Assembly: GCA_017853555.1 (NCBI GenBank)
Contig: JAFMJH010000007.1
Location: forward strand, 1-64,000
Direction: 5' to 3'
Length of the DNA: 64,000 bases
DNA from: Steroidobacteraceae bacterium
Lineage (GTDB): Bacteria > Pseudomonadota > Gammaproteobacteria > Steroidobacterales > Steroidobacteraceae
Shown here one piece after another: positions 10,302 through 33,214 of this stretch (the first letter of the stretch is position 1; each line of letters opens with the position of its first letter). Made by a program: the position numbers and the translations under genes. The notes below the pieces were generated by a model. The model made no database searches, was not told the DNA's origin, and worked only from the letters and a program-made list of their open reading frames with translations.

Positions 10302-11248
10302 TGGATGTGCGCGAGAATACCGTCGAGTTCGTCGAGCGAGTTGTAGGCGACGACGAGCTTGCCCTTGCCGCTCTGCCCCGAGTGCTCGATCACGACCTTC
10401 GCACCCAGAGTGTCGGCCAGGCGCGTCTCGAGTTCACGGACGTTCGGGTCCTTGCCCGAGCCACGCTCGAAACCTGCGCCACCCTCGTCCTGTTTCGGCG
10501 GATTGATCAGCCGGCGAACCAATGCCTCGGTTTCACGGACCGATAAGCTCTTTTTCGCAACCAATTGGGCGACTTCGAATTGCTGACGCTTTTGGGTGAG
10601 CCCGAGTAAGGCGCGCGCGTGACCCATCTCGAGTTCGCGGCGATCGACCAGTTCGGCGACCTCCGGGGCAAGCTCAAGCAGACGCAGCAGGTTGCTGACC
10701 GAGGCGCGCGAGCGACCGACGGCTTCGGCGGCCTGCTGATGCGTGACGCCGAATTCCTGGATGAGGCGCTGCAGGGCACGCGCCTCTTCGAGCGGGTTCA
10801 GGTTCTCGCGCTGGATGTTCTCGATGAGCGCCATCGCGATGGCCGACTCGTCCGGCACGCGCCGCACGATCGCCGAGATCTCGGTGAGGCCCGCCATCTG
10901 CGCGGCGCGCCAACGGCGCTCGCCCGCAATGATTTCGTAGCGGCTCGCCGCCCCGGGCGCCGCACCCGGCATCTCGATCGGCCGCACCACGATCGGCTGC
11001 ACGACACCCTGCGAACGGATCGAGTTGGCGAGGTCCTCGAGCGACTCGGGACGCATGTCGACGCGCGGCTGATAACGACCGCGTTGCAAAAGGTCGAGCG
11101 GCAACTTGGCCAGTTCGTCGCCCGGCAACCCGGCGGGCGCAGGGGGCGTCGACGCGCCCGGCGCGACGGCCGTCGTCTGACGGTTGGCGGCCATCTGGCC
11201 GAGCAACGCGTCCAGGCCGCGTCCCAAGCTGGGCTTCTTTTGCATCAT
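10298..11248 (-). CDS. parB: Chromosome-partitioning protein ParB (parS-binding CTPase)
   Basis: Binds parS near the origin, spreads as a CTP-dependent clamp and recruits ParA and SMC. The protein opens with the conserved KKPSLGRGLDALLGQ. It carries the CTP-binding box GERRWRAAQMAG and the segment EARALQRLIQEFGVTHQQAA leading into the helix-turn-helix AEAVGRSRASVSNLLRLL. A C-terminal dimerisation domain follows a basic/Gly linker. It is 316 aa long. The first ATG (11246-11248) is used; a second ATG follows directly. Two candidate target sites are present in recF, about 52 kb to the right. Confidence 0.97.
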   Translation of the reverse strand: MMQKKPSLGRGLDALLGQMAANRQTTAVAPGASTPPAPAGLPGDELAKLPLDLLQRGRYQPRVDMRPESLEDLANSIRSQGVVQPIVVRPIEMPGAAPGAASRYEIIAGERRWRAAQMAGLTEISAIVRRVPDESAIAMALIENIQRENLNPLEEARALQRLIQEFGVTHQQAAEAVGRSRASVSNLLRLLELAPEVAELVDRRELEMGHARALLGLTQKRQQFEVAQLVAKKSLSVRETEALVRRLINPPKQDEGGAGFERGSGKDPNVRELETRLADTLGAKVVIEHSGQSGKGKLVVAYNSLDELDGILAHIH

Positions 11249-11255
11249 GGCCGCG

Positions 11256-11283
11256 ATGATAGCGGACTCGGCTCGCGCGTCAC
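11256..11283 (-). promoter_or_regulatory. Possible parB promoter with -10 box seven bases from the ATG
   Basis: On the minus strand GTGACG (11283-11278), a 16-base spacer and TATCAT (11261-11256) precede the parB ATG by seven bases (CGCGGCC). The parA stop codon lies in the -35 box. A start at the usual distance would give a leaderless or almost leaderless parB mRNA. The -35 match is only 4 of 6, so this is a candidate. Confidence 0.42.
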
Positions 11284-12074
11284 GCGCTGCGGGCGGCGGG
11301 GGCGCGTTCCTCGTTGCGGCGGATCATCTCGCCGGCGAGCGCCAGGTAGGCGATCGCGCCGCGGGAGTCCTTGTCGTGCAGCAGGGCGGGTTTGCCGAAG
11401 GAGGGAGCCTCGGCGAGCCGCACGTTGCGCGGCACGATGGTGTTGAACACCTGGTCGCCGAAGTGGGTCAGCAACTGGCTGCTGACTTCGTTGGCGAGGT
11501 TATTGCGCGGATCGAACATGGTGCGCAGCACGCCCTCGATTTCGAGGTCGGGGTTCACGGCGGCGCGGATTTGTTCGATCGTGCCGAGCAGGGCGGTCAA
11601 GCCCTCGAGCGCGTAGTACTCGCACTGCATTGGCACGAGCACGCTGTCGGCGGCCACCAGCGCATTCACCGTGAGCATGTTGAGCGCGGGCGGGCAGTCG
11701 ATGAGTACGAAGTCATACTCGTCACGCACCGCCTTCAAGGCGTTGCGCAATTTCAGTTCGCGGCCGACCGGCAAGCCGAGCAACTGCACTTCGGCGGCCG
11801 TGAGGTCCTGATTGGAGGGGATGAGCGAGATCACCGGTGATTCGAGCGCAAGGATCGCCTCGCGCGCACTGCAATCGCCCACCAGCACGTCGCCGGCGCC
11901 GCGCACGATGTCGTTCTTTTCGACCCCGACGCCCATGGTGGCGTTGCCCTGCGGATCGAGATCGACCAGCAATACGCGTCGGCGCGTCGCGGCGAGCGAA
12001 GCGGCCAGATTGACGGCAGTGGTGGTTTTACCGACGCCACCTTTCTGGTTGGCGACGGCGATGACGCGACTCAT
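11280..12074 (-). CDS. parA: Chromosome-partitioning ATPase ParA (Soj family)
   Basis: Walker-type ATPase that forms a nucleoid-bound gradient and pulls ParB-parS complexes. The deviant Walker A motif KGGVGKTTT lies at residues 10-18 and Walker B is the VLIDCPPAL segment. At 264 aa it is the short chromosomal ParA type without an N-terminal DNA-binding extension. The frame is open upstream to 12260, but that part overlaps rsmG in another frame and is arginine-rich, so ATG 12072-12074 is chosen. This ATG overlaps the rsmG stop codon (ATGA). Confidence 0.97.
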
Positions 12075-12742
12075 GGATGCGAGTCTAGCGTAGGCGCGGG
12101 TGCGGGCGTGCGCTGCAATACGAGTAGGTGACGCTCCTCGGCGAGCCCCGGCACGTGCAAAGCGACGTCGGCTTCGATCTGCCAGCCTTCGGGCACCGCC
12201 GTACGCGCGGTCTCGCTGCGACGTCCTTTCATCGCGAGCACGCGCGTCGCCGGACCGCACAGGCTCGCGATGCGCTCGAGCATCAAAGGCAGCGGCGCGA
12301 ACGCGCGCGCCATCACCGTGTCGTACGGCAGCTGCGCACGATGTGCTTCGGCACGCGCGTGCACGGTGCGCACGTTGGCGAGTCCCAAGGTCCGCGCGGC
12401 ATGCGCGACGAAACGGACCTTCTTGCCGTTCGAGTCGAGCAAGGTGAATTCACGTTCGGGCGCAAGAATCGCCAACGGCAGACCCGGGAAACCGGCCCCG
12501 GTACCGACATCGAGAATGCGCGCACCGCGCAGCCACGGGGCGATCGACCAGCTGTCGAGCACGTGATGCGTGAGCATCGCGTCGCGCGCGTCGATCGACG
12601 TGAGGTTGTAGGCGCGATTCCAATGTTGCAGTTCGTCGAGCAGACGCTGCGTCTGCGCAAGCGCCGCCGGCGTGAGCGCGATTTCGAGCGCGGCCGCGCC
12701 CCGTTCGAGCACGCGAGCCTCCGCGGCGGACGCCGTGCTCAT
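12071..12742 (-). CDS. rsmG: 16S rRNA (guanine-527-N7)-methyltransferase
   Basis: Methylates G527 of 16S rRNA with S-adenosylmethionine; also known as GidB. The SAM-binding motif is [20 protein letters not shown], followed by [13 protein letters not shown] and a [10 protein letters not shown] segment, all diagnostic for the family. From ATG 12740-12742 it is 223 aa (207 in E. coli). The frame opens 30 codons earlier, but those overlap the preceding gene and are not family-like. In many gammaproteobacteria mnmG stands directly upstream; here an AcuI-family reductase does. Confidence 0.95.
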
Positions 12743-27039: not shown

Positions 27040-28310
27040 GCGCGCGGGGCCTTGGTGGTCGAAGCGGTGTGACGACGCGGTGTGGCAACGCGCGGAAATT
27101 CGCGCAAAGCGGCTTTCACCTCGATGTCGCGCAGCGGGTCACCGGGTGCGGTTTCGGGACCCTTGAGCACGACGTCGGGTTGTATGCCGCGTTCGTTGAT
27201 CATCGCCCCGGAGGGCGTGGCGTAACGCGACGTGGTGATCTTGAGCGCGCGGCCGTCACTCAGCGGAATCACGCTTTGCACCAGGCCTTTGCCGTAGGTG
27301 CGTCGCCCGACGAGACGCGCGCGGTGGTTGTCCTTCAATGCACCGGCCAGAATTTCGGCGGCGGAAGCCGAGGCGCCGTTGACCAGCACGACCACGTCGA
27401 CACCGCTGAGCAACTGGCCGGGTTTCGCATCCATGCGAAAGCGCGCATCGGGTGTACGCCCTTCGGCAGACACGATATTGCCGCCGTCGAGCATCGCATC
27501 GGCGACCGCGACCGCCGCTTCGAGCACGCCGCCGGGGTTGTTGCGCAGATCGAGCACGAGACCTGCGATCTGATGGGTTTGTCGCAACGATTTGAGCACG
27601 GCCTCGAGATCGGCGAGGGTGGTATCGCTGAACGCAACGATGCGCACATAGGCGCGGTTCGCAGCGAGCATCTGTCCCGAGACGCTGTGCACTTCGACAC
27701 GCGTCCGCTCGAGCGACACGTCGACCAACTCGCCGCTGCCGGCGCGCCGCACCGTCAAACGCACGCGAGAACCCGCTGGCCCGCGCATTTGTTCGATCGC
27801 TTCTTCGACGTCGCGTCCGACCGGCGCATCGTCGATGCGCACGATTTCGTCGCCGCTGCGCAAACCGGCACGCTCGGCGGGTGAATCGGACAAAGGTCGC
27901 AGTACTTTGATGGCCTTGCCTTCGGCGGCCACCTCGATGCCGATGCCCGGATAGTTGCCGGCGGCACCGCGACGAATTTCTTCGTATTCGCGCTGATCGA
28001 GATAGGCCGAGTAGGCGTCGAGGCTCGACACCATGCCGCGCGCCGCGTCATCGAGCAGTCGCTCGCGCGGCACTTCGTCGACGTACTCGCGCCGCACCCG
28101 CTGCAAAATTTCGGTGAGCCGTTGCTGATCTTGTGCCGTGAGTCCCGACGGCGCCGCGGGCGCCGGCGCAGCCGCACGCGATGGCGCGGCGACGCTCGCG
28201 ACCTTCGCGGCGGGGGCAGGCGGCGTAGCGTTCAGCCACGCGACGGCCGCACCCGCGCCGAGCGCGATGCCGATCACGAGCGTGAGCGTGTGACGTAGGC
28301 CTTGCGTCAT
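27036..28310 (-). CDS. ctpA: C-terminal processing peptidase (S41 family)
   Basis: Periplasmic serine protease of 424 aa anchored or exported by one N-terminal hydrophobic helix (residues 8-26), followed by an Ala/Pro linker, a PDZ domain (about 115-200) and the S41 catalytic domain. The nucleophile serine lies in NGASASAAEIL (311-321) and the general base is Lys341 in TYGKGLVQ. Such proteases trim cell-wall hydrolases and lipoproteins. It starts 29 bases after envC. TAAAAT lies nine bases before the ATG and could be a private -10 box. In Pseudomonas and relatives ctpA also follows an envC-type gene. Confidence 0.94.
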   Translation of the reverse strand: MTQGLRHTLTLVIGIALGAGAAVAWLNATPPAPAAKVASVAAPSRAAAPAPAAPSGLTAQDQQRLTEILQRVRREYVDEVPRERLLDDAARGMVSSLDAYSAYLDQREYEEIRRGAAGNYPGIGIEVAAEGKAIKVLRPLSDSPAERAGLRSGDEIVRIDDAPVGRDVEEAIEQMRGPAGSRVRLTVRRAGSGELVDVSLERTRVEVHSVSGQMLAANRAYVRIVAFSDTTLADLEAVLKSLRQTHQIAGLVLDLRNNPGGVLEAAVAVADAMLDGGNIVSAEGRTPDARFRMDAKPGQLLSGVDVVVLVNGASASAAEILAGALKDNHRARLVGRRTYGKGLVQSVIPLSDGRALKITTSRYATPSGAMINERGIQPDVVLKGPETAPGDPLRDIEVKAALREFPRVATPRRHTASTTKAPRA

Positions 28311-28338
28311 GACTGCGACATTTTATGACGGTTCATCT

Positions 28339-29490
28339 TCAAGGCGCGTTGTTGCGGAACCAGATCGCCGGATCGACCGGTCGCGCGCCCTTGCGGATCT
28401 CGAAATAGAGCGCCGGCTCGCCGCGACCGCCCGTATCACCCACCGAAGCGACGGTGTCCCCGGCAGCGACGCGATCGCCCACGGCACGATACAGATTCTC
28501 GTTGTGACCATAGAGGCTGAGGTAACCGTCGCCGTGGTCGATGATGAGCAAGCGTCCGAGGCCGGCGAGCCAATCGGCATAGACCACCCGCCCCGGATGG
28601 ATCGCTTTGACCGGCGAACCGCGCTCGGCTTCGATCAGCACGCCGTCCCATTTCACCGTGCCCGCCCGCGCCTCGCCGAAACGCGCCACCAGCTTTCCTT
28701 TGACCGGCCACGGCAGTTTGCCGCGCACCGTATCGAGCGGACTCCTGGATTTTTCGGTCGGAAATTTTTGGGCCGCTTTGCGCAACTCGCGCAGCAGTTT
28801 TTCGAGCGCGGCCTGTTCGCGTTGCAGACGCTGCAACGCCGCAGCGCGATTGCGCGCTTCGACGTTCAGTTGCGCGAGCACCTGCCCGCGTTCGAGACGC
28901 GCTTGGTCGAGCCGACTGACTTCGGCCTTGCGTTCGGCTTCAAGCCGCACGAGCCGCTCCTGCTCGGTCTCGAGTTGCGCATCGAGATCGGCGATGTCCT
29001 GCAAATGCCCCTGGATGACGGCGATCTGCGCGGCGCGCGCGCGACCGAAGTAGCCGTAATAGGAGAGCATCCGACCGGCTTCGGCCGGGTCGCGCTGGTT
29101 CAAAAACATTTCGATCGGTTCACGCTTACCGATCATGTAGGCGGCGCGCAATTGCGCCGCGAGGGTCGTGCGCTCGGATGCGAGCGCGCGTTCACGCTCG
29201 GCGCGCTGCCGCGCGAGCATGGCGCGGCGCCGTTCGCGCTCTTCGCGCTCGCCCCGCACCCGATCGAGTTGGTTGCGCGCGGCGCCCGCCGAACGCTCCG
29301 CTTCACGCAGGCTGCGGGCGAGTCGGTCGCGTTCTGCCGCATCTTGAGAGACCTGCGCACGTACCCGCTCGATTTCGGCACGCAACTGCTTCAGTTGGGC
29401 CTCGGTGCGCGTCGCATCTTGCGCCATGAGACTGCCCGAAGCGGCCGATAAGCCTGCGAGCAGCAAAAAAATGAGGCCTTTGCGCAACAT
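28339..29490 (-). CDS. envC: Murein hydrolase activator EnvC (degenerate LytM domain)
   Basis: Periplasmic activator of amidases at the division septum. The 383-residue protein has a signal peptide (LRKGLIFLLLAGLSAASG), a long coiled coil (about residues 25-245, rich in Arg, Glu, Ala) and a C-terminal LytM/M23 domain. The zinc ligands are lost: the first His position reads WDGVLIEA and the HxH reads LYFEIRKG, as in known EnvC, so it activates rather than cuts. ATG 29488-29490 is used; upstream codons lack a signal peptide. It is divergent from yibN (40 bases). Confidence 0.93.
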   Translation of the reverse strand: MLRKGLIFLLLAGLSAASGSLMAQDATRTEAQLKQLRAEIERVRAQVSQDAAERDRLARSLREAERSAGAARNQLDRVRGEREERERRRAMLARQRAERERALASERTTLAAQLRAAYMIGKREPIEMFLNQRDPAEAGRMLSYYGYFGRARAAQIAVIQGHLQDIADLDAQLETEQERLVRLEAERKAEVSRLDQARLERGQVLAQLNVEARNRAAALQRLQREQAALEKLLRELRKAAQKFPTEKSRSPLDTVRGKLPWPVKGKLVARFGEARAGTVKWDGVLIEAERGSPVKAIHPGRVVYADWLAGLGRLLIIDHGDGYLSLYGHNENLYRAVGDRVAAGDTVASVGDTGGRGEPALYFEIRKGARPVDPAIWFRNNAP

Positions 29491-29498
29491 GTGCCGAA

Positions 29499-29504
29499 AT
29501 TGTA
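29499..29504 (-). promoter_or_regulatory. envC -10 box, eight bases before the ATG
   Basis: TACAAT on the minus strand (5 of 6 to consensus), followed by TTCGGCAC and the envC ATG. A start at the usual distance would leave an mRNA with no leader or one or two bases. No good -35 box is seen at 16-18 bases. Confidence 0.45.
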
Positions 29505-29518
29505 ACCGCTGCTGACGA

Positions 29519-29524
29519 TATAAT
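29519..29524 (+). promoter_or_regulatory. yibN -10 box, six bases before the ATG
   Basis: A perfect TATAAT followed by CGCGTC and ATG. Transcription would begin at or beside the A of the start codon, giving a leaderless mRNA. The -35 region overlaps the -10 box of the divergent envC, so the two promoters probably interfere. Confidence 0.55.
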
Positions 29525-29530
29525 CGCGTC

Positions 29531-29962
29531 ATGGATAAACTGCCCGAATACGTCGCAAACCACCCGTGGCTGGTCGCCATCGCCGTGGCGGCATTGCTGA
29601 TCGTGATCGTCTACGAAGTGATCGCACGCCGTGACGACTTCGCTTCGATCTCTTCGCAGGAACTCGTGCGGCTGCAAAATGCCGGCGGGTTGGTGTTGGA
29701 CTTGCGCGATACGGAATCGTTCGCCGCGGGTCACATCGGCGGCGCGCGTCACATGGACTCCGCCGACATCCTCCGCGCCACCGAAAAACTGCCGAAGCAC
29801 AAAGAGAAGCCGGTGATCGTGTACTGCAAATCCGGCACGACGGGTGCCTCGGCGGTGCGTGTCCTCGCGTCACAAGGTTTCACTCAAGCGTTCAATTTGC
29901 GCGGCGGGCTCGCCGCCTGGAGCGCCGAAGGCATGCCGCTCACCCAGGAAGAAAAGGGCTGA
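29531..29962 (+). CDS. yibN: Membrane-anchored rhodanese-like protein YibN
   Basis: 143-residue protein with one N-terminal membrane helix (residues 12-29, WLVAIAVAALLIVIVYEV) and a cytoplasmic rhodanese domain. The catalytic loop is VIVYCKSGTTGASA, with Cys as sulfur acceptor. First gene of yibN-grxC-secB-gpsA, the same order as in E. coli. No ribosome-binding site lies between the -10 box and the ATG, in line with a leaderless mRNA. Confidence 0.9.
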   Translation: MDKLPEYVANHPWLVAIAVAALLIVIVYEVIARRDDFASISSQELVRLQNAGGLVLDLRDTESFAAGHIGGARHMDSADILRATEKLPKHKEKPVIVYCKSGTTGASAVRVLASQGFTQAFNLRGGLAAWSAEGMPLTQEEKG

Positions 29963-29964
29963 TC

Positions 29965-30222
29965 GTGAGCGCGAACGTCGTCATGTACGCGACCTCCTGG
30001 TGCCCGTATTGCGAACGGGCCCGGCAATTGTTCGCGCGCAAGCAGATCGCCTGCACCGAGATCGACATCGACAAAGATCCTGCCCTGCGCGAACAGATGA
30101 TGACGCGCAGCGGGCGGCGTACCGTACCCCAGATTTTCGTCGGCGACGTGCACGTCGGCGGTTGCGACGATTTGCACGCACTCGAGGCCCAGGGCGGTCT
30201 CGATCCTTTGCTCACCCGATAG
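29965..30222 (+). CDS. grxC: Glutaredoxin 3
   Basis: Glutathione-dependent disulfide reductase of 85 aa. The active site is SWCPYCERA (Cys13-Pro-Tyr-Cys16), and the glutathione-binding TVPQIFVGDVHVGGCDDL is complete. GTG at 29965 is the start, two bases after the yibN stop, with AAGGG upstream. It is followed by secB after nine bases. Confidence 0.95.
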   Translation: MSANVVMYATSWCPYCERARQLFARKQIACTEIDIDKDPALREQMMTRSGRRTVPQIFVGDVHVGGCDDLHALEAQGGLDPLLTR

Positions 30223-30231
30223 AGGCTCATC

Positions 30232-30717
30232 ATGTCCGAACCTACCGGCGCCGACGGCGCAGCACCGACCATCGATCCGAACGCACCCGAGTTTTCGTTG
30301 CAGTCGGTGTACCTCAAAGACGTCTCCTTCGAAGCGCCGCGCGGTCCGCGACTCGACAGCGAGTGGAATCCGCAGGTCTCCCTCGAACTCAACACCGGTG
30401 CCGAGCAAGTCGGCGAAAATCTGCACGAAGTCGTGCTGACCATCAGCCTCACCGTCAAAAACGGCGAACAGACTGCATTTCTCGTCGAAGTGAAACAGGC
30501 CGGTCTGTTCGGCGTGCGCAATCTGCCCGAAGAAGACTATCGCCGCGCGGTGGCGAGCCTCGCGCCCGGCGTGTTGTTCCCCTACGCGCGCTCGGTGATC
30601 GCGAGCCTCGTGACGCAAGGCGGTTTCCCGCAGATGTTGCTGCCGCCGATGAACTTCGAAGCGATGTATCTGCAATCGATGCTGCAAGCGCAGCAGCAAG
30701 CCACCCTCAACAGCTGA
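30232..30717 (+). CDS. secB: Protein-export chaperone SecB
   Basis: Tetrameric cytosolic chaperone that holds preproteins unfolded for SecA. The 161-residue protein has the family core FSLQSVYLKDVSFEAP, HEVVLTISLTVKNGEQTAFLVEV and the C-terminal FPYARSVIASLVTQGGFPQ with MNFEAMYLQ. SecB is restricted to Proteobacteria and supports the class assignment. AGAGG lies before ATG 30232. Confidence 0.97.
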   Translation: MSEPTGADGAAPTIDPNAPEFSLQSVYLKDVSFEAPRGPRLDSEWNPQVSLELNTGAEQVGENLHEVVLTISLTVKNGEQTAFLVEVKQAGLFGVRNLPEEDYRRAVASLAPGVLFPYARSVIASLVTQGGFPQMLLPPMNFEAMYLQSMLQAQQQATLNS

Positions 30718-30735
30718 CCGAACGAGCGGCCCTCA

Positions 30736-31755
30736 TTGAGCACCGCGCCCGTCACCACCTCGCCCATCGCCGTGCTCGGCGCGGGCTCCTGGGGCACGGC
30801 GCTCGCCATCCAGTTTGCGCGCGCCGGGCGCACGACGCGTCTGTGGAGTCGGGACCGTCAGCAAAGCGTCGCGATGGCGCAGACACGCCGCAACGACCGT
30901 TATCTGCCCGAGGCGGCGTTTCCCGCGGGACTGACCGTCGCCGCGGATCTGCCCGTCGCGCTCGATGGTGCGGCAGACGTACTCATCGCCGTGCCGAGTC
31001 ACGGTTTGCGCGCGCTGCTGCGCGAGATCGCGCCGCTGTTGCGCGCCGAGACGCGTCTGGCCTGGGCGACCAAAGGTTTCGAACTCGACACCGGCTTGCT
31101 GCCTCACCAAGTCGCCGCCGAAGTGCTCGGCACCGCAAGACCGCAAGCCGTGCTCTCCGGTCCGACTTTTGCGCGCGAGGTCGGCGCGGGTCTGCCCACG
31201 GCGATGACGGTGGCTTCGGCCGATGCCGGTTACGCCGCAACGCTCGCACAAAGTCTGTCGTCCGAAAAATTCCGCGCCTATACCTCGACCGACATCGTCG
31301 GCGTGGAAGTCGGTGGCGCGGTCAAGAACGTGCTCGCCGTCGGCGCGGGACTCACCGACGGTCTCGGCTTCGGCGCCAACACGCGCGTCGCGCTCATCAC
31401 GCGCGGCCTGCTCGAAATGACCCGCCTCGGCGAAAAACTCGGTGCACGCCGCGAAACCTTCATGGGGCTCGCCGGTCTCGGCGATCTGGTGCTCACCTGC
31501 ACCGACGATCAATCGCGCAATCGTCGCTTCGGATTGTTGCTCGCGGCAGGGCGCAGCGTGCCGCAAGCGCTCGCGGACATCGGTCAGGTGGTCGAAGGTT
31601 ATCTCGCGGCCGCGGCCGTGCATCGCGTGGCGAGCAGGCTCGGCGTCGAAATGCCGATCTGCGAAGGCATCCATCGCACCTTGTACGAAGGTGCGCCGCC
31701 GCGTGAAGTCGTGCGTGATTTGATGGGGCGACCGATCCGCCCCGAGTTCGACTGA
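30736..31755 (+). CDS. gpsA: NAD(P)-dependent glycerol-3-phosphate dehydrogenase
   Basis: Makes sn-glycerol-3-phosphate from dihydroxyacetone phosphate for phospholipid synthesis. The dinucleotide motif GAGSWGTALA starts near residue 15. The catalytic Lys is in VGGAVKNVLAVGAG, followed by GLGDLVLTCTDDQSRNR. The length is 339 aa. The start is TTG 30736, because the next in-frame ATG would delete the nucleotide-binding motif. The ribosome-binding site is poor (GAGCGG). It lies 18 bases after secB, and convergent trmL ends one base past its stop. Confidence 0.95.
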   Translation: MSTAPVTTSPIAVLGAGSWGTALAIQFARAGRTTRLWSRDRQQSVAMAQTRRNDRYLPEAAFPAGLTVAADLPVALDGAADVLIAVPSHGLRALLREIAPLLRAETRLAWATKGFELDTGLLPHQVAAEVLGTARPQAVLSGPTFAREVGAGLPTAMTVASADAGYAATLAQSLSSEKFRAYTSTDIVGVEVGGAVKNVLAVGAGLTDGLGFGANTRVALITRGLLEMTRLGEKLGARRETFMGLAGLGDLVLTCTDDQSRNRRFGLLLAAGRSVPQALADIGQVVEGYLAAAAVHRVASRLGVEMPICEGIHRTLYEGAPPREVVRDLMGRPIRPEFD

Positions 31756-31756
31756 C

Positions 31757-32224
31757 TCAGCCGTAGCCGTTCTGGCGCCACGCCTCGTAGAGTACGAGGC
31801 TCACCGAGTTCGACAAATTGAGACTGCGATTGCCGGCGCGCATCGGGATGCTCGCGATCGCCTGCGGTGCGAACTGCGCGAGAATCTCGGGCGGCAGACC
31901 GCGCCCCTCCGAACCGAACAGCAAGACGTCACCCGGCCGATACGCGATCTGATCGTAACGTCGATCACCGCCGGTTTCGATCGCGTACCACGCCGCCTGC
32001 GGCACCTGCTGCGCGAGCGCCGCCCGACAGGCCGCGAAATCGTCGTGCACGTGTACCGCGGCCATCCAGCGATAGTCGAGTCCCGCCCGCCGCAACGAGC
32101 GCCGGTCGAGATCGAAGCCGATCGGTTTCACCAGATGCAAGGTCGCACCGGTGTTGGCGGACAGGCGGATCACGTTGCCGGTATTCGGCGGAATCTCGGG
32201 TTCAAAGAGCACGAGGTGAAACAT
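31757..32224 (-). CDS. trmL: tRNA (cytidine/uridine-34-2'-O)-methyltransferase TrmL
   Basis: SPOUT-class enzyme that methylates the wobble base of tRNA-Leu isoacceptors. The 155-residue protein opens MFHLVLFEPEIPPNTGNVIR, has LLFGSEGRGLPPEIL in the SAM-binding knot, and ends with the diagnostic RSLNLSNSVSLVLYEAWRQ. The frame runs open to 32461, but ATG 32222-32224 is the family start. In E. coli trmL also lies near gpsA and secB. Confidence 0.95.
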   Translation of the reverse strand: MFHLVLFEPEIPPNTGNVIRLSANTGATLHLVKPIGFDLDRRSLRRAGLDYRWMAAVHVHDDFAACRAALAQQVPQAAWYAIETGGDRRYDQIAYRPGDVLLFGSEGRGLPPEILAQFAPQAIASIPMRAGNRSLNLSNSVSLVLYEAWRQNGYG

Positions 32225-32231
32225 GGGCGAG

Positions 32232-32237
32232 ATCATA
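32232..32237 (-). promoter_or_regulatory. trmL -10 box, seven bases before the ATG
   Basis: TATGAT on the minus strand (5 of 6), followed by CTCGCCC and ATG. It predicts a leaderless trmL mRNA. It lies eight bases from the pyrD -10 box that points the other way. Confidence 0.4.
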
Positions 32238-32245
32238 GCCTGTGC

Positions 32246-32251
32246 GATAAT
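32246..32251 (+). promoter_or_regulatory. pyrD -10 box, six bases before the ATG
   Basis: GATAAT (5 of 6) followed by CGCGCC and ATG, the same layout as upstream of yibN (TATAATCGCGTC-ATG). It predicts a leaderless mRNA. The -35 region is weak and overlaps the trmL start. Confidence 0.4.
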
Positions 32252-32257
32252 CGCGCC

Positions 32258-33214
32258 ATGGTCGATGCCCAGCCCGCCACCGATCCCTCGCTGCAATTTC
32301 GCTTCCTCGGGATGGCGTTCGCCTCGCCCATCGTGTTGCTGTCGGGCTGCGTCGGTTTCGGCGAGGAATACACCCGCATCGAAGGTTTCTCGAATCGCGA
32401 TACCGGTGCCGTCGTGCTCAAAGGCACGACGCTCGATCCGCGGCTCGGCAATCCGCCGCACCGCGTCTACGAAACGCCCATGGGCATGCTCAACGCCATC
32501 GGCCTGCAGAATCCCGGAACCGACAACGTGGTGCGCGACATCCTGCCCGCACTCGATTTCGACGAAACGCGCTTCATCGCCAACGTCTCCGGTTCGACCA
32601 TCGAAGAATATGCCGAAGTCACGCGCCGCTTCGACGACTCGCCGATCGACGCGATCGAAATCAACATTTCCTGCCCGAACGTCAAAGAGGGCGGCGTCGC
32701 CTTCGGCAACTACCCCGAGATGTCGGCGCGCGTCGTCGCCGCCTGCCGCGCGGTCACCAAAAAACCGCTGATCACCAAGCTATCGCCGAATCAAACCGAC
32801 ATCAAAGAAAACGCCCGCTTGTGCATCGAAGCAGGCAGTGACGGTCTCGCCGTGATCAACACGGTGATGGGCATGGCGATCGACGTCAAATCCCGCAAGC
32901 CCGTGATCGGCAACGTGCAGGGCGGTCTGTCGGGGCCGGCGATCAAGCCGATTGCGCTGCTCAAAGTGCATCAGGTCTACGACGTCGCCAAAAAACACGG
33001 CGTGCCCATCATCGGGCAGGGCGGCATCGTCAACGCGACGGACGCACTCGAGTTCATCATCGCCGGCGCGAGCGCCGTGGGCGTCGGGACGTCGCTGTTC
33101 TACGACCCGATGAGTTGCAAGAAGATCAACGCCGGCATCGCCGATTATCTGCGGCACAACGGTTACGGCAACGTCACCGAACTCGTCGGCAGCCTGACGA
33201 TCCCGCCGCGCTGA
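32258..33214 (+). CDS. pyrD: Dihydroorotate dehydrogenase, class 1B-like catalytic subunit
   Basis: FMN enzyme of pyrimidine synthesis, 318 aa. The active-site base is a cysteine in INISCPNVKEGG, the class 1 hallmark, where class 2 enzymes have serine. The length and the segments IGLQNPGTDNV and GQGGIVNATDALEF match class 1B (PyrDB). That class normally works with the iron-sulfur/FAD subunit PyrK and NAD; no pyrK is in the window. Gammaproteobacteria usually carry the membrane-bound, quinone-linked class 2 enzyme. ATG 32258 is used; 33 bases separate it from divergent trmL. Confidence 0.88.
   Translation: MVDAQPATDPSLQFRFLGMAFASPIVLLSGCVGFGEEYTRIEGFSNRDTGAVVLKGTTLDPRLGNPPHRVYETPMGMLNAIGLQNPGTDNVVRDILPALDFDETRFIANVSGSTIEEYAEVTRRFDDSPIDAIEINISCPNVKEGGVAFGNYPEMSARVVAACRAVTKKPLITKLSPNQTDIKENARLCIEAGSDGLAVINTVMGMAIDVKSRKPVIGNVQGGLSGPAIKPIALLKVHQVYDVAKKHGVPIIGQGGIVNATDALEFIIAGASAVGVGTSLFYDPMSCKKINAGIADYLRHNGYGNVTELVGSLTIPPR

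What the first reader, a model, noticed from the sequence alone, without database searches (positions are those of the whole stretch)
29488..32260. -10 boxes 6-9 bases before ATG: predicted leaderless mRNAs
yibN (TATAAT-6 nt-ATG), envC (TACAAT-8 nt-ATG), trmL (TATGAT-7 nt-ATG) and pyrD (GATAAT-6 nt-ATG) share the layout; parB (TATCAT-7 nt-ATG at 11256) and ctpA (TAAAAT-9 nt-ATG at 28320) follow it too. In a GC-rich sequence such AT-rich hexamers at one fixed distance are unlikely by chance. Several have no Shine-Dalgarno sequence.
Basis: partly seen in the sequence, partly recalled or inferred. Interest (0 to 1): 0.55.

Follow-up and report, generated by a model that had tools for sequence, protein, structure and literature searches.

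The report
Promoters abutting start codons: leaderless genes
In this uncultured bacterium a minority of genes carry their promoter so close to the start codon that the messenger RNA should begin at the start codon itself, and the layout is kept in related species, which makes it a solid new example of a known way of starting genes rather than a new one.

Summary
A genus relative shows the same (81 of 981; 26.8 expected); one genome of another family does not (6 of 316; 6.9 expected). Other AT-rich hexamers are depleted there. In the genus the box-to-ATG distance stays at 6-9 nt while flanks and intergenic lengths change: parB 19 of 19 genomes scored, yibN 21 of 22, pyrD 18 of 18. ctpA is the weakest case. 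The leaderless reading is well supported, but no RNA was seen. The net share, about 5%, is within the published gammaproteobacterial range of 3.0-5.7%. One addition: two divergent pairs in the window have start codons 40 and 33 bp apart, so their predicted promoters overlap. In 11 of 22 genus members the yibN/envC boxes are merged into ATTGTATAAT inside a 25-bp gap, a predicted two-way promoter for two leaderless genes.

The parts
29519..29524 (+). -10 box TATAAT of yibN, 6 nt before the ATG at 29531
   Evidence: TANNNT at 6-8 nt in 21 of 22 genus members scored
29531..29962 (+). yibN, rhodanese-domain protein, predicted leaderless
29499..29504 (-). -10 box TACAAT of envC, 8 nt before the ATG at 29490
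   Evidence: TACAAT at 7-9 nt before an in-frame ATG in 20 of 22 genus members scored; one has none and one only a TTG with TACACT
28339..29490 (-). envC-like M23 peptidase, predicted leaderless
32246..32251 (+). -10 box GATAAT of pyrD, 6 nt before the ATG at 32258
   Evidence: TATAAT or GATAAT at 6-8 nt in 18 of 18 genus members scored
32258..33214 (+). pyrD, class 1 type dihydroorotate dehydrogenase, predicted leaderless
32232..32237 (-). -10 box TATGAT of trmL, 7 nt before the ATG at 32224
   Evidence: TANNNT at 6-8 nt in 15 of 17 genus members with the divergent pair
31757..32224 (-). trmL, SpoU-family methyltransferase, predicted leaderless
   Evidence: start taken from homology; my gene caller chose 32236 instead
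11256..11261 (-). -10 box TATCAT of parB, 7 nt before the ATG at 11248
   Evidence: at exactly 7 nt in 19 of 19 genus genomes scored
10298..11248 (-). parB, predicted leaderless from a promoter in the 31 bp behind parA
12082..12087 (-). possible -10 box TAGACT of parA, 7 nt before the ATG at 12074 (not in the finding); it lies inside the end of the preceding gene (12071-12742), so it is less certain
   Evidence: same box and spacing in G001
28320..28325 (-). -10 box TAAAAT of ctpA, 9 nt before the ATG at 28310; weakest of the six
   Evidence: kept in the closest relative (TAAGAT-9 in L203), patchy in the rest of the genus
29491..29530 (.). 40-bp envC/yibN intergenic region with two divergent -10 boxes 14 bp apart; the boxes are fused in a 25-bp gap in 11 of 22 genus members
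32225..32257 (.). 33-bp trmL/pyrD intergenic region with two divergent -10 boxes 8 bp apart

Best explanation
The boxes are -10 elements of housekeeping-type (sigma-70-like) promoters with little or no -35 element. RNA polymerase starts RNA about 7-9 bases downstream of the box, at or within a few bases of the A of the start codon. The mRNAs of yibN, envC, trmL, pyrD and parB, perhaps also of parA and ctpA, then have no leader and are translated by a ribosome that binds the 5'-terminal AUG. About 5% of genes in this genus are of this kind, beside a majority without the signal. Where two such genes diverge, the promoters overlap, so polymerase can occupy only one of the two at a time. Shown: position, enrichment, conservation and promoter-like sequence. 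Inferred: the transcription starts, the absence of a leader, leaderless translation, and exclusion between the divergent promoters.
For: Enrichment at gaps 6-9 in the own genome and G001, not in G034. TANAAT and G at -14 over-represented among near-start boxes in own and G001. AT-rich hexamers that are not -10-like are depleted there, 81 against 101.7 in own. Boxes are commoner at divergent starts (32 of 192) and 21-60 nt behind a co-directional gene (11 of 95) than within 20 nt of one (6 of 284). Of 22 TA-led own genes with an orthologue in G001, 12 are TA-led there too, against 18 of 245 of the others, at a median protein identity of 66%. Spacing is kept in parB, yibN, envC, pyrD and trmL in the genus while yibN/envC start codons lie from 25 to 70 bp apart. 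In pyrD of genomes from a named collection, NATAAT lies at gap 6 or 7 in 30 of 71 scored, at gaps 8-12 in none, and at no other gap up to 49 in more than 4; outside the 11 genus loci it is 20 of 60.
Against: No transcript data. No -35 enrichment: mean best match 2.67 of 6 in both sets, though 5-of-6 matches were 4 against 0.6 expected. Starts more than 60 nt behind a co-directional gene, which should also have promoters, carry the box in only 3 of 112. A control window, gaps 40-43, also showed shared boxes (3 of 12 against 4 of 255, p = 0.002), while gaps 20-23 and 30-33 showed none. The strongest patterns at gaps 6-9 are Shine-Dalgarno pieces, so TA-led genes are a minority. SD-like cores are rare in TA-led genes, 1 of 52 against 214 of 640, but a box there leaves little room for one, so this adds little. 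Starts come from a simple codon-model caller that misplaced the trmL start. Ten of 22 TA-led own genes are not TA-led in G001; in 5 of these the called starts differ by more than 3 residues and in 3 the identity is under 35%. The genus counts for envC, pyrD and trmL allowed any in-frame start codon near the homology start.
Confidence: 0.87

Rival explanations
1. The boxes are real promoters, but the main mRNAs of some of these genes come from further upstream (parB as part of parAB, ctpA behind envC), so leaderless RNA is a secondary product there.
For: parB starts 31 bp behind parA and ctpA 28 bp behind envC on the same strand; ctpA's box is patchily conserved.
Against: parB's box is at 7 nt in 19 of 19 genomes scored. 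For the divergent pairs a leadered transcript would have to start inside the opposite gene, which begins 33-40 bp away.
Confidence: 0.3
2. Transcription starts 1-5 nt upstream of ATG, at a base of the stretch between box and ATG, giving very short leaders rather than none.
For: At gaps 8-9 the usual distance from the box to the start falls just before the ATG; stretches such as cgcgcgc contain G.
Against: At gap 6 the A of ATG is at the usual distance, and in some pyrD relatives there is no purine before it (cccccc in L028 and L066).
Confidence: 0.35
3. AT-rich, unstructured translation-start regions, not promoters.
For: The hexamers are AT-rich in a genome of about 65% GC.
Against: AT-rich hexamers that are not -10-like are below expectation there, 81 against 101.7 in own and 174 against 209.8 in G001, while AT-rich -10-like ones are 44 against 9.7 and 47 against 15.7.
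Confidence: 0.03
4. Chance, or an artefact of start calling.
Against: The caller used no upstream motif; 52 genes observed against a maximum of 19 in 200 shuffles; the same caller finds no excess in G034; starts placed by homology show the same spacing.
Confidence: 0.01

Closest known systems
TA-led (leaderless) genes of bacteria, Zheng et al. 2011 (PMC3160421; outline, abstract and passages seen)
   Same: TANNNT signal about 12 bp upstream of the start, read as a -10 box; their table gives 15 of 239 gammaproteobacterial genomes, 3.0-5.7% of genes, with most in Xanthomonadales and Legionellales.
   Different: Here a genus known from metagenome-assembled genomes, about 5% net, so an ordinary level; conservation of the spacing is followed gene by gene. 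I did not check which lineages they covered.
Leaderless mRNAs mapped by RNA sequencing, e.g. Cupriavidus metallidurans (PMC7563307, passages seen: 4.67% of primary starts have a 5' UTR under 5 nt)
   Same: Similar share in a proteobacterium.
   Different: There from RNA; here predicted from DNA.
Bidirectional promoters with symmetric -10 elements (PMC10268837 and PMC12825309, passages seen; Warman et al. 2021 known only as they cite it)
   Same: Divergent -10 elements that overlap, with starts on opposite strands 7-25 bp apart, 18 bp most common. The fused ATTGTATAAT core of 11 of 22 genus members shares a TA between both boxes.
   Different: In the window the boxes do not overlap (14 and 8 bp apart). 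In the fused form the register differs from the common 18-bp one (predicted distance about 23-26 bp), and both products would be leaderless mRNAs.

Membership tests
Leaderless (TA-led) genes | -10-like box about 10-12 bp upstream of the start codon, enriched at that distance in the genome | tested here: met
   on 31% of the genome
Leaderless (TA-led) genes | No Shine-Dalgarno sequence | tested here: met
   None in the six by eye; 1 of 52 TA-led starts has an SD-like core, partly forced by lack of room
Leaderless (TA-led) genes | Transcription start at or within a few nt of the start codon | not testable with these tools
   No RNA data held
Leaderless (TA-led) genes | Start codon correct | tested here: met
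   Homology supports the starts of yibN, envC, trmL, pyrD and parB; ctpA is less certain
Sigma-70-type promoter | -10 consensus beyond the searched letters | tested here: met
   TANAAT 18 of 52 against 11 of 140; G at -14 32 of 52 against 57 of 140
Sigma-70-type promoter | -35 TTGACA with a 15-19 bp spacer | tested here: not met
   No difference in mean match; many bacterial promoters have a poorly conserved -35 (PMC10268837 passage)
Bidirectional promoter (7-25 bp definition) | Divergent starts 7-25 bp apart with overlapping -10 elements, window pairs | tested here: not met
   Boxes 14 and 8 bp apart; if RNA starts at the A of each ATG the starts are 41 and 34 bp apart
Bidirectional promoter (7-25 bp definition) | Same, for the fused yibN/envC core of relatives | tested here: inconclusive
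   Boxes overlap by 2 bp in 11 of 22 genomes; the predicted start distance of about 23-26 bp straddles the limit

The most novel reading that the evidence does not exclude
This genus uses minimal divergent promoters in which two leaderless genes face apart across 25-40 bp, and in half of the species scored a single 10-bp symmetric element, ATTGTATAAT, is the promoter for both envC and yibN. The intergenic DNA then holds only the two -10 boxes and the short stretches between box and start, each start codon is also a transcription start, and any -35 contact lies in or beside the opposite gene's start. A change in the shared TA should silence both genes at once.
Probability: 0.55. Interest if true: 0.6.

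Novelty: new member of a known kind. Interest (0 to 1): 0.42.

Why it matters
It adds leaderless genes, with gene-by-gene conservation, in an uncultured gammaproteobacterial genus, and shows that the box-to-ATG distance is held while the surrounding DNA changes. It helps gene-start annotation in such genomes. The double-leaderless divergent pairs, if confirmed, are a compact system for testing how two overlapping promoters share one stretch of DNA.

Tried and rejected
Chance and AT-richness were rejected by shuffles and by the control with AT-rich hexamers that are not -10-like. A -35 element was sought and not found as an enrichment. An excess of divergent pairs with both genes TA-led was tested: 4 of 96 pairs against 2.67 expected in own, 7 of 126 against 3.67 in G001, 1 of 42 against 0.15 in G034, so no clear excess (the window's trmL/pyrD pair is not among the 4, because GATAAT does not fit the pattern and the trmL start was misplaced). 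A caller-free count of TATAATN{6,7}ATG over 117 genomes of the order gives more hits than the reversed control in many genomes (own 5 against 0, G006 15 against 1, but also G034 7 against 0, against my negative result there), and none in others (G072 3 against 6, G125 8 against 12, both of the same family); it is too sparse to place the origin of the trait. Conservation of parA across the genus could not be scored because the flanks were cut (1 of 18 rows usable, the own one); only G001 supports it. ctpA as a clean case was rejected.

Papers: searches. In the listings (capped, e.g. 20 of 92) I saw no title or abstract start about a promoter serving two leaderless genes; two papers hold both 'pyrD' and 'leaderless' and were not opened. 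Warman 2021 and a Xanthomonas start-mapping paper are not held. Absence from print is not claimed.

Rows dropped: 12 of 705 genes (open or too near an edge); searches used 692 starts because they need 90 nt upstream. One search, two G001 stretches under 2 kb (L235, L236) not used., L173 (start not covered); L031 (pair not divergent) left out for trmL., 9 of 80 loci (no ATG or edge)., parB: L194 skipped as too short (its visible end fits by eye), and L201 is the same genome as L199, so the tool's 20 is 19 genomes. The genus has 24 held genomes including the own one; pyrD gave 18 scored loci, yibN and envC 22, parB 19. Eleven of the 80 named loci are genus genomes already, judged by equal contig lengths; hence the separate count outside the genus.
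Full report
What was claimed. Six genes were said to carry a -10-like hexamer 6-9 bases before ATG, hence leaderless mRNAs.

Observation. All six are as described. Family models support the identities: dihydroorotate dehydrogenase, SpoU/TrmL-type methyltransferase, rhodanese domain, M23 peptidase closest to EnvC, S41 C-terminal peptidase, ParB. TrmL and EnvC fall below their NCBIfam equivalog cut-offs.

Genome and lineage. The window lies in a 2.48 Mb assembly of 74 contigs, 94% complete; the window is 65% GC. Its nearest relatives by PyrD in a named collection are metagenome-assembled gammaproteobacteria; several titles suggest lakes (Erken, Baikal). With the own one, 24 genomes of the genus are held.

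Enrichment. I called genes with a simple in-frame hexamer model that uses no upstream motif, on 779 kb (31%) of the genome. For 693 starts, TANNNT sites at gaps 6-9 number 53, against 16.5 expected from gaps 14-53 and 3.9 from internal ATGs; the peak is at gaps 6 and 7 (17 each); the best other four-wide window holds 28. Dinucleotide shuffles of the 20 upstream bases give 11.3 +/- 3.2 genes, maximum 19 in 200, against 52 observed; 47 of the 52 lie outside the window. The net share is about 5%. The same analysis gives 81 sites for 981 starts against 26.8 expected (best other window 38) in a genus relative, G001, and 6 for 316 against 6.9 in G034, of another family in the order. The pattern ATNNNA shows no significant enrichment in any of the three. 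The reversed pattern TNNNAT is mildly enriched in own (45 against 24.6), as expected since TATAAT also fits it. A scan of three-letter patterns at gaps 6-9 is headed by Shine-Dalgarno pieces, so SD is the stronger signal in this genome.

Promoter character. Near-start boxes read TANAAT in 18 of 52 cases against 11 of 140 for boxes further off, and have G at -14 in 32 of 52 against 57 of 140; in G001 23 of 81 against 22 of 229, and 49 of 81 against 82 of 229. AT-rich hexamers that are not -10-like are depleted at that place. No -35 enrichment was seen. By context the box precedes 32 of 192 divergent starts, 11 of 95 starts 21-60 nt behind a co-directional gene and 6 of 284 within 20 nt of one; but only 3 of 112 starts more than 60 nt behind a co-directional gene, where promoters are also expected.

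Conservation. Between own and G001, 273 reciprocal best hits have a median identity of 66%. Of own TA-led genes 12 of 22 are TA-led in G001, of the rest 18 of 245 (odds ratio 15, p = 1.3e-7). Control windows at gaps 20-23 and 30-33 show no shared case, but gaps 40-43 show 3 of 12 against 4 of 255 (p = 0.002), perhaps promoters of leadered genes. Gene by gene in the genus: parB has TATCAT at exactly 7 nt in 19 of 19 genomes scored. yibN has TANNNT at 6-8 nt in 21 of 22. envC has TACAAT at 7-9 nt before an in-frame ATG in 20 of 22. pyrD has TATAAT or GATAAT at 6-8 nt in 18 of 18, although the distance from ATG to the conserved core varies. trmL has TANNNT at 6-8 nt in 15 of 17 divergent pairs. 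ctpA keeps a box in the closest relative and in some others with shifted starts, and lacks it in many. Of 12 loci from other families of the order read (L039-L050), only L047 has TATAAT 6 nt before the pyrD ATG; L045 has TAGAAT 9 nt before a later ATG; none has it for trmL. Among 71 usable pyrD genes of the named collection, NATAAT sits at gap 6 or 7 in 30 and at gaps 8-12 in none; outside the 11 genus loci 20 of 60, among them three labelled Steroidobacteraceae (L072, L076, L092); the two Thioalkalivibrio loci lack it.

Divergent pairs. In the window the envC/yibN start codons are 40 bp apart and those of trmL/pyrD 33 bp, each gap holding two outward-facing boxes, 14 and 8 bp apart. Each promoter's -35 region then falls on or beside the other gene's start, so the two should compete for space (inference). 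In 11 of 22 genus members the envC/yibN gap is 25 bp and the boxes share a TA in ATTGTATAAT, flanked by 8 and 7 nt. This resembles the bidirectional promoters of E. coli and Salmonella, where starts 7-25 bp apart share a symmetric -10 element (PMC10268837, PMC12825309, passages), but the register is not the common 18-bp one, and both RNAs would be leaderless. Divergent pairs with both genes TA-led are not clearly in excess, so this is a property of a few conserved pairs.

Mechanism. Polymerase recognises the -10 box, opens the DNA and starts 7-9 bases downstream, at or beside the A of ATG. The RNA has a 5'-terminal AUG that a 70S ribosome can bind directly, as reviewed in PMC9031893 (passages). 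Position, sequence and conservation are shown; transcription starts and translation are inferred.

Known or new. Zheng et al. 2011 (PMC3160421, passages) read such signals as leaderless genes and found them in 15 of 239 gammaproteobacterial genomes at 3.0-5.7%. [quoted passage not shown] The finding is a well-supported new member of that kind. The fused double-leaderless promoter of relatives is the one part that may be a new variant.

Noticed in passing
L153-L155, L157, L158, L161, L163, L164, L166-L168: yibN/envC start codons only 25 bp apart with fused -10 boxes ATTGTATAAT. The window species and G019 have a 40-bp version, G016 37 bp, others 61-70 bp, so the promoter region has been rebuilt within one genus while both box-to-start distances stayed at 6-9 nt.
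   Followed up: partly
L181-L201, upstream of parB: The bases just before parB's TATCAT (TCCGC or TCCGT, TTCGC in L182) are nearly invariant in the genus although DNA further upstream varies; G at -14 is constant. Could be an extended -10 or another site.
   Followed up: no
L002:14318-15142 (contig C55 98318-99142) and L002:5240-7108 (C55 89240-91108): A gene that looks like pyrF and one that looks like mnmG (both named by eye from their N-termini, no family search) are TA-led in own and in G001, so two pyrimidine genes, pyrD and this one, may share the layout.
   Followed up: no
L055: A genome held as a member of this genus (contig length equal to that of G006) is titled Klebsiella pneumoniae MAG (CAMCBU010000013.1); its pyrD is 89% identical to the window's. 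Probably a mislabelled bin.
   Followed up: no
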